DNA from: Prochlorococcus sp. AG-418-M08
GTDB taxonomy: Bacteria > Cyanobacteriota > Cyanobacteriia > PCC-6307 > Cyanobiaceae
Assembly: GCA_003213955.1 (NCBI GenBank)
Contig: QCMG01000005.1
Coordinates: 62,001 to 126,000, forward strand
DNA length: 64,000 bases
Reading direction: 5' to 3'
Below the pieces are notes generated by a model that was not told where the DNA came from, ran no database searches, and saw nothing but the letters and a program-made list of their open reading frames with translations. A program made the position numbers and the translations under genes. Below are positions 10,142 through 50,799 of the stretch, in pieces (position 1 is the first letter of the stretch; each line of letters opens with the position of its first letter).

Positions 10142-11437
10142 TTAAATACTTAACTTTTCCCATATTACATTTAAATTGCTGAGATGAATTGCTGGGTCGA
10201 AGCATGCCTTCAAATCATTCTCATTAACTAATTCCATGATCTCTTGATCTCCCTCAATATTTTGCTTGAAATTACCATTCTCATTATTCCAAGCTTGATG
10301 AGCATTTTTCTGTACTAAACTATAAGCCTTTTCCCTAGATAAACCCTTCTTAACAAGTAAAAGTAAAACTTTTTGACTAAAAATTACGCCACCATATATA
10401 TTTAAATTTTTGAGCATATTTTCTGGATAAACTTTTAAATTACTTATTATTTCAGTCATTTCTCTAAGCATAAAATGAAGGCATATTGAAACATCTGGTA
10501 ACATGACTCGTTCATTAGAGCTATGACTAATATCTCTTTCATGCCAAAGTGGCACGTTCTCAAGAGCTGTTACAACATGACTCCTTAGGATTCTAGATAA
10601 ACCGCTGACCCTTTCACTACGAATAGGATTTCTTTTGTGTGGCATAGCTGAGCTACCTTTTTGCCCTTTTGTAAATCCTTCTTCAACTTCTAAAACGTCT
10701 GTTCTTTGAAGGTTCCTTATTTCGGTTGCAAATCTATCAAGAGAAGCGCCAACAAGTGCAATTGTTTGAACATATTCCGCATGTCTATCTCTTGATATAA
10801 CCTGAGTACTTGCTGTGTCTGGTTTTAAACCTAGCAAATCACAAGTTATTTTTTCTATTTCGGGGTTTGTATTAGCGTAAGTCCCCATGGCTCCACTTAT
10901 TTGTCCTATGGAAATAGATTCTTTCAGGATTAATAATCTTTTTTTATCTCTTAATATTTCCGCCAACCATCCCGCTAATTTAAATCCAAATGAAATTGGC
11001 TCTCCGTGAATAGCATGCGATCTTCCAATCATTAATGTATTTTTATGCTTTCTCGCTAATAATCTGACTTCATTTTCTAGTTTTTCAATTTCTTTTAATA
11101 ACAATTCACAGGAATCTTTTAGCTGTAAAGATAGGCCAGTATCAAGTACATCACTGCTAGTCATCCCAACATGAATATATCTTCCAGAATCTCCAACGTT
11201 TTCATTGATATTTGTAAGAAACGCTATCACATCATGTTTTACCTCTTTCTCAATTTCTTTAATTCTTGATTCTTGAAATTTTGCATTTAAGCGAATTGAC
11301 TTTAAATCTTCTTCAGGTATTTTCCCAAGAGAGCAATTTGCCTCACACGCTGCGATTTCAACTTTAAGCCAACTCTGGAATTTTGAATATTCAGTCCAGA
11401 TTTTCCCCATTTCTGGCAATGTGTAACGTTCAATCAC
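10142..11437 (-). CDS. purB: Adenylosuccinate lyase
   Basis: Cleaves SAICAR and adenylosuccinate, releasing fumarate in purine synthesis (431 aa). The superfamily signature GSSAMPHKRNP is present with the purB-type HVGMTSSDVLDT and GRSHAIHGEP blocks. It lies upstream of fumC on the same strand, so fumarate made here can be hydrated by the next gene's product. Length is typical. Confidence 0.95.
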   Translation of the reverse strand: MIERYTLPEMGKIWTEYSKFQSWLKVEIAACEANCSLGKIPEEDLKSIRLNAKFQESRIKEIEKEVKHDVIAFLTNINENVGDSGRYIHVGMTSSDVLDTGLSLQLKDSCELLLKEIEKLENEVRLLARKHKNTLMIGRSHAIHGEPISFGFKLAGWLAEILRDKKRLLILKESISIGQISGAMGTYANTNPEIEKITCDLLGLKPDTASTQVISRDRHAEYVQTIALVGASLDRFATEIRNLQRTDVLEVEEGFTKGQKGSSAMPHKRNPIRSERVSGLSRILRSHVVTALENVPLWHERDISHSSNERVMLPDVSICLHFMLREMTEIISNLKVYPENMLKNLNIYGGVIFSQKVLLLLVKKGLSREKAYSLVQKNAHQAWNNENGNFKQNIEGDQEIMELVNENDLKACFDPAIHLSNLNVIWEKLSI

Positions 11438-46591: not shown

Positions 46592-46672
46592 TTAATGCCA
46601 AATTAGCCAAAATAAAGCACAACCATATAGAACACCTGTAAAAACAATTACTGGGAGGAGAAAGATTTTCAT
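46592..46672 (-). CDS. Very small membrane peptide (26 aa)
   Basis: ATG at 46672 overlaps the stop of the upstream gene (ATGA). The product, MKIFLLPVIVFTGVLYG then CALFWLIWH, is a single hydrophobic span. Short, but the overlap and hydrophobicity suggest a real partner peptide. Confidence 0.4.
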   Translation of the reverse strand: MKIFLLPVIVFTGVLYGCALFWLIWH

Positions 46673-46839
46673 TTGATTAAAAATTTATCTAAACCATTTT
46701 GTTGGACGTATATAAAAAACCAAAAAGCAACTGAGAGATTTAATAGCACTGTTAGTGATATAGAAATAATTAAAAATTTCTTACCAATCCCTGATTGATT
46801 GGAATTACTACCTGCTATTGAAATTGACTCAAGTTTCAT
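46669..46839 (-). CDS. Small single-span membrane protein (56 aa)
   Basis: Product begins MKLESISIAGSNSNQSGIG, with a span ISISLTVLLNLSVAFWFFIY near residues 25-45 and a short basic tail. Coupled to the 26-aa gene by a 4-bp overlap. No family recognised. Confidence 0.5.
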   Translation of the reverse strand: MKLESISIAGSNSNQSGIGKKFLIISISLTVLLNLSVAFWFFIYVQQNGLDKFLIK

Positions 46840-47142: not shown

Positions 47143-47358
47143 ATGGTAGGAGTAACTAAAGATCCAACATTATTTTTACTTTTAGGAAGTATTGGGCTGC
47201 TTCTCTTTGGCTCTATAGGATATGGAATATATACAACTGTTGGACCATCCTCTTATAAGTTAAGAGACACAATTAAAGAGCATGCAAGATTACATGAATT
47301 GGGTATCGCTCATGGACACAATAGTCACAATCATAATGAAGCAGACCATATTCATTAA
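47143..47358 (+). CDS. PsbN-like membrane protein with histidine-rich tail
   Basis: From the ATG at 47143 (the frame also has ATGs at 47113 and 47119) the product is 71 residues. A hydrophobic segment, LFLLLGSIGLLLFGSIGYG, runs into IYTTVGPSSYKLRDTIKEH, which resembles the PsbN pattern IYTAFGPPSxxLRDPFEEH. A His-rich tail ends it (HGHNSHNHNEADHIH), absent from ordinary PsbN. PsbN aids photosystem II assembly; the tail suggests metal binding. The normal psbN locus is elsewhere, so this is probably a paralogue. Confidence 0.55.
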   Translation: MVGVTKDPTLFLLLGSIGLLLFGSIGYGIYTTVGPSSYKLRDTIKEHARLHELGIAHGHNSHNHNEADHIH

Positions 47359-47372
47359 AAAAATAATTTCAA

Positions 47373-47510
47373 ATGTATTTGTTTTTTGTTGAGTCTAATT
47401 TAACGACAGAATTCTTCTTTATTTCAATTTTTTCTGGAGCTTTATTATCGTTCTTTATTTTCCTACTTTTTTGGTTATCTAATCAAAATGCGATTTTTAA
47501 AAAACAATAG
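47373..47510 (+). CDS. Small membrane protein (45 aa)
   Basis: ATG at 47373, 15 bp after the PsbN-like stop. Product begins MYLFFVESNLTTEF and has a very hydrophobic span FISIFSGALLSFFIFLLFW, then a polar tail. Probably co-transcribed with the PsbN-like gene. Confidence 0.45.
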   Translation: MYLFFVESNLTTEFFFISIFSGALLSFFIFLLFWLSNQNAIFKKQ

Positions 47511-47746: not shown

Positions 47747-48265
47747 TCAGGTTAATGCTTTAAGTTTTCGTTCTATAGGATTAAACCCAAATCTCTTAAT
47801 TTGATAATTTTCCCAAACCCAATAAACAGGTGGAGTTTTTCTTGCCTTTATTAAACTTATTTGGTCTAATTTTTGTGGGATAAATTCTTTAGCTGGATCA
47901 AAAAATTTATCTCTTGTGGGTTGATTTAAAACAATACTACCTTCTTTGCTTGAGATTGATCTGTGATAAGTTCCAATAGGAATTTCTAATGCTCCCATTG
48001 ATCTATTTAAATAAATCACATGATGAGGTTCATCCCATGCAGGATTTATTAAAACAAATGTTCTTTCCCCTGTAATAACTAAGTTGTGATCAATTTGATG
48101 ATTGTGAACATAATATTGTTCATCATTAAAATCATCTGGCGGAGATATAGCTTCTTCAGAGTGAATTACCACATCGCAACCATTAGATGCCCTCAATCCT
48201 GCATCAAAGAATGTCACTTTTGGAGTCTCTCTAAAAATTGTTGTTGGCATGAATTTTAATTTCAT
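47747..48265 (-). CDS. Cupin-fold hypothetical protein
   Basis: A 172-residue protein of mostly beta character. The segment YYVHNHQIDHNLVITGERTF with HHVIYLNRS and IPIGTYHRSIS resembles cupin/RmlC-like folds, where histidines bind metal or sugar. An in-frame ATG lies 15 bp upstream, but GAGAGG sits at ribosome-binding distance from the ATG at 48265, so this start is preferred. Specific substrate unknown. Confidence 0.55.
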   Translation of the reverse strand: MKLKFMPTTIFRETPKVTFFDAGLRASNGCDVVIHSEEAISPPDDFNDEQYYVHNHQIDHNLVITGERTFVLINPAWDEPHHVIYLNRSMGALEIPIGTYHRSISSKEGSIVLNQPTRDKFFDPAKEFIPQKLDQISLIKARKTPPVYWVWENYQIKRFGFNPIERKLKALT

Positions 48266-48337
48266 AGTTAAACCTCTCATTAAAAATTTATGAATATTTT
48301 TAAAATTTATAAGCTATGAAAACCGATTAATGAATAG

Positions 48338-50394: not shown

Positions 50395-50799
50395 ATGAGT
50401 TCACTTTTTTTATTGCCTTTACTATTGGGTTTTTCATTGCCTGCTATTGCGGAGTCAAAAACGTATAAAATAAATGTTTCGGCAGAAGATTACCGTAACT
50501 ATATTCTTAGTGGAACAGATAGGAACGGATCTGTAGGTGGGGAAGATCCCACAGTTACAGTGAATAAAGGAGACAAAATTATTTTTGATGTTAATGCATT
50601 TCGCCATCCGTTCTATATAAAAACTGAATTTTCTCGTGGAGTTGATAATCAGGTAATCACAGGAACAATTTCTGGAACTCCTGGAACGCAAAATGGCAAA
50701 TTATCATGGAATACGACTGGGGTATCAGTAGGCAAATACTATTACGTTTGTTCTCCGCATGCATCTTTTGGAATGGGAGGGACAATTATTGTTAAATAA
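50395..50799 (+). CDS. Exported cupredoxin-like protein
   Basis: A 134-residue protein with a signal peptide (about residues 1-19, ending AIAES). The mature domain is a plastocyanin-like beta sandwich. Copper ligands are a His in FRHPFYIKT and the C-terminal block CSPHASFGM (Cys-x2-His-x4-Met), as in plastocyanin CxPHxxxxM. It may carry electrons in the lumen or periplasm, or store copper. Gene context does not reveal its partner. Confidence 0.75.
   Translation: MSSLFLLPLLLGFSLPAIAESKTYKINVSAEDYRNYILSGTDRNGSVGGEDPTVTVNKGDKIIFDVNAFRHPFYIKTEFSRGVDNQVITGTISGTPGTQNGKLSWNTTGVSVGKYYYVCSPHASFGMGGTIIVK

What the first reader, a model, noticed from the sequence alone, without database searches (positions are those of the whole stretch)
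47143..47510. PsbN-like protein with a histidine-rich tail in the island
The product has the PsbN-like span plus IYTTVGPSSYKLRDTIKEH, then a tail with five or more His (HGHNSHNHNEADHIH). Ordinary PsbN lacks this. A photosystem II assembly paralogue with a metal-binding tail, paired with another small membrane protein 15 bp downstream, would be a new variation on PSII biogenesis.
Basis: partly seen in the sequence, partly recalled or inferred. Interest (0 to 1): 0.52.

Follow-up and report, generated by a model that had tools for sequence, protein, structure and literature searches.

The report
Histidine-tailed PsbN of Prochlorococcus and phages
A small photosynthesis-related membrane protein of the ocean's commonest photosynthetic bacterium exists in a second form with a conserved four-histidine tail; one group of strains seems to have kept only this form, and viruses of these bacteria carry one form or the other.

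Summary
The gene is real: 47143-47358, 71 aa, PsbN core plus a histidine tail, followed 14 nt later by a 45-aa membrane protein. It is a paralogue; the genome's ordinary PsbN lies elsewhere without a tail. The most constrained feature is a four-His helix before the poly-His end, E-H-A-[RK]-[LM]-H-[EK]-L-G-I-A-H-x-H, shared by several Prochlorococcus genera and many cyanophages. A tree of the core alone separates this form from canonical PsbN (96/94). In one genus (41 genomes, LLI-like by inference) no canonical psbN was found, and the psbH-psbI interval lacks it in seven of seven genomes inspected; the His form is the only PsbN found there (32 of 41; frame damaged in 2 of 16 read). Phage gene T4-GC163 joins one leader to either ending; no record showed both. 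Best reading: an alternative PsbN in early photosystem II assembly, with a metal-binding cytoplasmic helix (metal inferred). Main rival: nickel handling, because in that genus and two others the gene lies just upstream of sodT, the proposed nickel transporter for Ni-superoxide dismutase. No functional data exist here.

The parts
47143..47358 (+). His-tailed PsbN paralogue, 71 aa
   Evidence: PF02468 25.8 bits; relatives; dN/dS 0.12 in 19 HL-type copies
47164..47241 (+). predicted membrane helix, residues 8-33
   Evidence: AlphaFold2 helix 8-33, block pLDDT 86-87 over residues 11-30
47179..47283 (+). PsbN-profile part, residues 13-47
   Evidence: Pfam alignment
47278..47319 (+). conserved four-His motif EHARLHELGIAHGH, residues 46-59
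   Evidence: four His in 57-58 of 60 distinct host rows and 56 of 56 phage rows read without using the His as anchor; dN/dS 0.04 over residues 47-60; predicted helix of low confidence
47320..47355 (+). variable poly-His end, residues 60-71
   Evidence: present in HL-type copies, absent or different in other clades; dN/dS 0.26 over residues 61-71
47373..47510 (+). 45-aa hydrophobic, probably single-helix membrane protein, downstream partner in many HL-type relatives
   Evidence: tblastn hits in 54 of 97 loci, some partial or broken and some loci overlapping; dN/dS 0.12 in 15 copies; no Pfam or NCBIfam match above a cut-off

Best explanation
The gene encodes an alternative form of PsbN: the PsbN membrane helix and core, extended by a conserved helix with four histidines (H-x3-H-x5-H-x-H). 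Shown: it belongs to the PsbN family, groups with a set of phage proteins apart from canonical PsbN, is the only PsbN found in one Prochlorococcus genus, and replaces the canonical ending in one of two kinds of phage PsbN. Inferred: it does PsbN's work in forming or repairing the D1/D2 reaction centre at the cytoplasmic face, and the four histidines hold a transition metal there, perhaps the iron destined for the four-His non-heme iron site, or nickel or zinc. In the window's strain it would be an accessory copy beside the canonical PsbN.
For: PF02468 above cut-off, also for three of three other host copies tested. Core-only tree: 27 His-form host plus 7 His-form phage rows split from 27 canonical plus 4 canonical-type phage rows, 96/94. 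Replacement: 0 of 41 genomes of genus g56 have a canonical hit while 32 of 41 have the His form; G003 and G060 (g4) and G027 likewise show only the His form; no psbN between psbH and psbI in 7 of 7 g56 genomes inspected, G003 and G027, but present in the window genome. dN/dS 0.024 in 11 g56 copies against 0.12 in HL copies. Phages carry one ending or the other on a common leader. Four His in 57-58 of 60 distinct host rows. In plants PsbN exposes its C-terminus to the stroma and acts in RC assembly; PsbN is found in Synechocystis RCII; the non-heme iron is held by four His and is probably inserted when the heterodimer forms (PMC4823308; PMC11449106; passages read).
Against: No expression, binding or mutant data. 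PsbN's role in cyanobacteria is itself unproven: a Synechocystis psbH psbN double mutant looked like psbH alone, so loss of canonical psbN could be neutral. Of 16 g56 copies read, 2 (L135 of G110, L138 of G146) have a frame broken near the 5' end, and 2 of 17 g56 genomes at least 90% complete (G224, G248) show no PsbN at all; some strains may lack any intact PsbN, unless these are sequencing or assembly faults. In g56, g4 and g27 the gene is linked to sodT, which points to nickel. In the window's genus it is patchy, 19 of 68 listed genomes; 3 of 58 fetched loci have broken frames, one more is cut by a contig end, and a copy in G365 has lost most of the His motif. Phage copies score below the Pfam cut-off in 3 of 3 tested (19.8-24.5 bits). 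The His helix is predicted at low confidence (block pLDDT 59-75, pTM 0.29 and 0.33).
Confidence: 0.45

Rival explanations
1. A PsbN-derived nickel-handling protein: the cytoplasmic His helix takes nickel from the SodT transporter (or senses it) for Ni-superoxide dismutase, and has left photosystem II.
For: sodT starts 130-201 nt after the gene's stop in 16 of 16 g56 loci read, and 252-275 nt after it in the two g4 loci and the one g27 locus. In g4 loci L102 and L104 sodN is also within 2 kb, with a sodX-like gene between in L102 (named by eye). SodT is of the UreH type, whose members have a His-rich cytoplasmic segment, and is proposed to feed SodN (PMC4284471, passage). Poly-His ends are common in nickel chaperones (recalled).
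Against: In the LLII/III-like, HL and HNLC genomes searched sodT is not adjacent (for example about 123 kb away in G078). 3 of 3 LLIV-like genomes have the His form but gave no sodT match at E 1e-10; this may be a diverged transporter, since sodT is called core in Prochlorococcus (PMC10119275, passage). It does not explain why phages alternate it with the canonical PsbN ending, nor why canonical psbN is absent where it is common.
Confidence: 0.27
2. A PsbN variant for PSII in which the conserved helix is only a docking surface for a partner protein and binds no metal; the poly-His end is incidental.
For: Non-His residues of the motif (L, G, I, A) are as invariant as the histidines; the models show helices and no fold that would form a site (low confidence); the poly-His end varies and is absent in several clades.
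Against: Four histidines kept in nearly all host rows and all phage rows, and separate HxH endings in HL, LLIV-like and phage forms, are hard to explain without a metal or proton role.
Confidence: 0.22
3. Chance resemblance among short membrane proteins.
For: The Pfam score is barely above the cut-off, and some members fall below it.
Against: Members of the form score up to 38.9 bits (G027); core residues align with PsbN; tree and phage fusion data.
Confidence: 0.03

Closest known systems
PsbN (PF02468), photosystem II assembly factor
   Same: One N-terminal membrane helix, GYGIY...GP.S..L.D...EH core; profile match above the Pfam cut-off.
   Different: Extra conserved four-His helix and tail; separate clade; not next to psbH; well below the NCBIfam equivalog cut-off.
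Cyanophage T4-GC163, 'possible PsbN' (Sullivan et al. 2010, PMC3037559, passages read)
   Same: In P-SSM2, P-SSM7, P-TIM68 (read) and, by tblastn, P-SSM5 and many environmental phages the C-terminal half carries the same four-His motif.
   Different: These phage forms carry an extra leader of about 30-40 residues (MIFLSxPxVYxLPGTW...); in P-HM1, P-HM2, P-SSM4, P-RSM4 and others the ending is canonical instead.
SodT / UreH-type nickel transporter locus (PMC4284471, passage read)
   Same: Neighbour of the His form in g56, g4 and g27; also His-rich.
   Different: A transporter of about 222 aa, not homologous; not adjacent in the window's genome.

Membership tests
PsbN (PF02468) | Profile score over the curated Pfam cut-off | tested here: met
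   25.8 bits against 25
PsbN (PF02468) | NCBIfam PsbN equivalog cut-off (70 bits) | tested here: not met
   24.6 bits
PsbN (PF02468) | Single N-terminal membrane helix followed by a hydrophilic C-terminus | tested here: met
   predicted helix 8-33, then a hydrophilic region; orientation in the membrane not tested
PsbN (PF02468) | About 43-50 aa, ending just after the conserved [ED]H | tested here: not met
   71 aa with 24 residues after the EH; canonical forms end 2 residues after it
PsbN (PF02468) | Orthologue of canonical psbN, divergent from psbH | tested here: not met
   canonical psbN lies at psbH on another contig; the His form groups apart from it
PsbN (PF02468) | Needed for PSII reaction-centre assembly | not testable with these tools
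   needs mutants
T4-GC163 phage PsbN | Phage leader MIFLSxPxVYxLPGTW | tested here: not met
   absent from the window protein and the 12 other host forms aligned
Nickel-handling His-rich protein | Genomic link to nickel genes | tested here: inconclusive
   next to sodT in g56, g4, g27 but not in the other clades tested
Nickel-handling His-rich protein | Binds nickel | not testable with these tools
   needs biochemistry

The most novel reading that the evidence does not exclude
A metal-loaded PsbN that replaced the canonical assembly factor in a whole Prochlorococcus lineage: its four-His cytoplasmic helix delivers or checks the metal (for instance the non-heme iron) as D1 and D2 join, and cyanophages carry either the plain or the metal-binding version on a common phage leader. 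It would be one of the few candidates for the unidentified non-heme-iron step of PSII assembly.
Probability: 0.2. Interest if true: 0.8.

Novelty: new variant of a known kind. Interest (0 to 1): 0.6.

Why it matters
PsbN is an assembly factor of unknown mechanism. A lineage that seems to have swapped it for a four-His form, and phages that carry one version or the other, make a natural experiment: what does the His helix add, and is PsbN's partner the same? It offers a testable candidate for metal handling during reaction-centre assembly, or a link between photosynthesis and nickel-dependent oxidative defence. It also means that 'psbN' counts in viral metagenomes (for example PMC8940887, passages) may mix two different proteins.

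Tried and rejected
Rejected: chance resemblance. Rejected: the poly-His end as the key feature; it varies most. Tested and dropped: a link between phage His-type PsbN and lack of psbD. P-SSM2, P-SSM7 and AG-345-L05 (149 kb record, possibly incomplete) have one Photo_RC gene and P-HM1, P-HM2, P-SSM4 two, but P-TIM68 (His type) has two and P-RSM6 (canonical type) one. Homology of the 45-aa partner with the 57-64-aa protein of LLII/III-like loci: not established (tblastn E 0.003 at best; hhalign probability 11%, E 0.0027 over 27 columns). PDB: no clear relative; profile best E 0.55, canonical PsbN no match up to E 1. Rfam psbNH motif found only in the LLIV-like locus among 8, so no test of psbN loss, since loci that keep psbN lack it too. 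Structure search not run: both models are low-confidence.

Literature, open-licence library only: PsbN with Prochlorococcus 23 papers (passages of six read, two more), PsbN with NATL2A 2, with cyanophage 8, 'PsbN-like' 0, PsbN with histidine-rich 1, seen in the listing only. In these I saw no description of the two forms or of psbN loss, but most were seen as listings only.

Change made on checking: counting frames in g56 brought two damaged copies to light; confidence lowered from a drafted 0.5 to 0.45, rivals raised slightly.

Full report
Observation. Pfam puts residues 13-47 in PsbN (25.8 bits, cut-off 25). The NCBIfam PsbN equivalog is matched at only 24.6 bits against 70. The same genome has an ordinary PsbN, 59.9 bits, ending ...LTDPWDDHDD without a tail, beside psbH on another contig. 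So the window gene is a second, divergent PsbN-family gene. A 45-aa membrane protein starts 14 nt after its stop.

Clade names. HNLC and many HL loci are named in their records, though clade names such as HLII are mine. The names psbH, psbI, sodX (in L102), ctaC and ctaD rest on reading by eye.

Distribution. In 400 genomes drawn from the family strong relatives occur in the window's genus (19 of the 68 genomes of that genus that are listed, so patchy), and in g56, g4, g27, g11, g39, g34, g17, g33 and g5. Among annotated phages 17 records matched the window protein and 33 matched the P-SSM2 protein, some of them by the leader only.

The conserved element. The alignment of 19 diverse members shows G-x-Y, L-x-D-x-I-x-E-H, the second His, G-I-A-H and the last His invariant. 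A count anchored only on the core, not on histidines, gives the four His in 58, 57, 57 and 58 of 60 distinct host rows and in 56 of 56 distinct phage rows. For the phages the scan patterns included the first or second His, so only the third and fourth are unbiased there. The poly-His end is an HL feature; other clades have other ends, and HxH recurs near the end in HL, LLIV-like and many phage forms. dN/dS in 19 HL copies is 0.04 in the motif and 0.26 in the end; over the whole gene it is 0.12 in HL and 0.024 in 11 intact g56 copies; the 45-aa partner has 0.12 in 15 copies.

Phylogeny. A tree of the core only (47 columns, tail excluded, 65 rows) splits 27 canonical and 4 phage rows from 27 His-form host and 7 His-form phage rows with support 96/94. 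The host His forms as a group of their own have only 70/38. The program warns of few columns and of long branches that meet, so finer forks are not used.

Loss of canonical psbN. Of 19 genomes searched by handle, 15 show a canonical hit of 59-78 bits and 4 (G130, G056, G173 in g56; G003 in g4) show only the His form; two of the 15 (G017, G095) were taken as genomes without the His form. In all 41 g56 genomes held, none has a canonical hit and 32 have the His form; of the 17 at least 90% complete, 15 have it, and G224 and G248 show neither (the 32 agree). Of 16 g56 copies read, 14 have an intact frame; L135 (G110) and L138 (G146) are shifted near the 5' end. In a further set G060 (g4) and G027 show only the His form; G094 too, but it is 65% complete and its genus-mates G016 and G066 have the canonical; both HNLC genomes, G104 and G033 have both. 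Between psbH and psbI there is a psbN frame in the window genome and none in seven g56 genomes, G003 or G027. LLII/III-like, LLIV-like, HL and HNLC genomes with the His form tested keep the canonical form as well, G094 apart.

Phages. Sullivan et al. 2010 (PMC3037559; passages read) reported T4-GC163 as a possible PsbN universal and exclusive to Prochlorococcus T4-like phages in their set. Reading the proteins shows two kinds: a canonical-type ending (P-HM1, P-HM2, P-SSM4, P-RSM6, P-TIM40, metaG-MbCM1, S-SSM4, P-RSM1, and P-RSM4 with a shortened leader) and the four-His ending (P-SSM2, P-SSM7, P-TIM68, AG-345-L05), on one leader. P-SSM5 and other AG-345 and AG-341 viruses match the His kind, and P-RSM3, P-SSM3, MED4-213, S-SSM6b and S-TIM4 the canonical kind, by tblastn only. 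Each listed record shows one place per search; S-SSM7 and S-SSM6a match the leader at one place and, weakly (E 0.4), another place, and were not resolved. Canonical-type forms also match in phages isolated on Synechococcus, S-SSM4, S-SSM6b and S-TIM4. The stretch EAYEMSGKL after the motif is shared by g56 hosts and the P-SSM2 kind, a sign of exchange.

Neighbours. In many HL relatives the 45-aa protein follows (tblastn hits in 54 of 97 loci, some overlapping; spacing mostly 9-14 nt), but not in all (for example L064 and L065). In 8 LLII/III-like loci a 57-64-aa membrane protein follows at -4 to +6 nt; L112 shows only a 34-aa frame further on. Homology of the two proteins is not established. 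In 6 LLIV-like loci an AlpA-type regulator follows at 41 nt (Pfam tested for one). In 16 of 16 g56 loci, two g4 loci and one g27 locus a His-rich membrane protein follows. I identify it as SodT: its relative in the window genome lies beside Ni-superoxide dismutase (Sod_Ni, 167 bits) and a signal-peptidase-like gene, as described for sodN-sodX-sodT (PMC4284471, passage; PMC10119275, passages). Direct Pfam matches of SodT are absent or weak. In the LLII/III-like, HL and HNLC genomes searched sodT is not adjacent to the His form, and 3 of 3 LLIV-like genomes gave no match.

Mechanism. Shown: family membership, conserved His motif, two versions in phages, only-PsbN status in g56. Inferred: cytoplasmic side, from PsbN topology in plants (PMC4823308, passages); a role in reaction-centre assembly, from PsbN in tobacco and its presence in Synechocystis RCII (PMC11449106, passages); metal binding, from four conserved His. 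Which metal is open. Iron would fit the four-His non-heme iron site, whose insertion probably occurs when D1 and D2 join and whose delivery factor is not proven. Nickel would fit the sodT linkage. AlphaFold2 gives a membrane helix and a second helix through the motif, but the second at low confidence.

Verdict. Function unproven. New variant of a known kind.

Noticed in passing
L263-L267, L269, L270 (psbH loci of genus g56), L268 (g27) and L273 (g4): Canonical psbN is missing from the psbH-psbI interval in these genomes.
   Followed up: yes
L135 (G110) and L138 (G146): The His form, the only PsbN found in these nearly complete genomes, is frame-shifted near its 5' end; real loss or sequencing fault is not known.
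   Followed up: partly
L040:6001-6213 and 10495-10701; L039:6460-6576: Second full or partial copies of the His-tailed gene a few hundred bases to 4.5 kb away, with a second copy of the divergent 56-aa gene in L040.
   Followed up: no
L069, L121 (HL genomes): A second type of His-tailed PsbN with a longer Lys-rich end, a few kb from genes I read as cytochrome-oxidase subunits ctaC and ctaD (named by eye).
   Followed up: no
L110, L111, L114, L115, L116, L118 (LLIV-like loci): The gene is followed 41 nt later by an AlpA-type regulator (PF05930, 63 bits, tested for L110).
   Followed up: partly
window 47747-48280, minus strand: Protein matching phage family phrog_9052 (173.7 bits); a relative lies near a degraded copy of the His-tailed gene in L121 too (by eye).
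   Followed up: no
window 50395-50799, plus strand: Plastocyanin-like copper protein (PF00127, 33.8 bits) in the same stretch of short genes.
   Followed up: no
window 46669-46839, minus strand: Conserved 56-aa, probably single-helix membrane protein divergent from the His-tailed gene; hits in 31 of 97 loci.
   Followed up: no
L226:1501-1668 (phage S-SSM7): A leader like that of T4-GC163 joined to a short membrane helix with a basic end and no PsbN part (T4-GC646).
   Followed up: no
L289 (phage S-SSM4): The canonical-type phage psbN sits directly upstream of the plastoquinol terminal oxidase gene.
   Followed up: no
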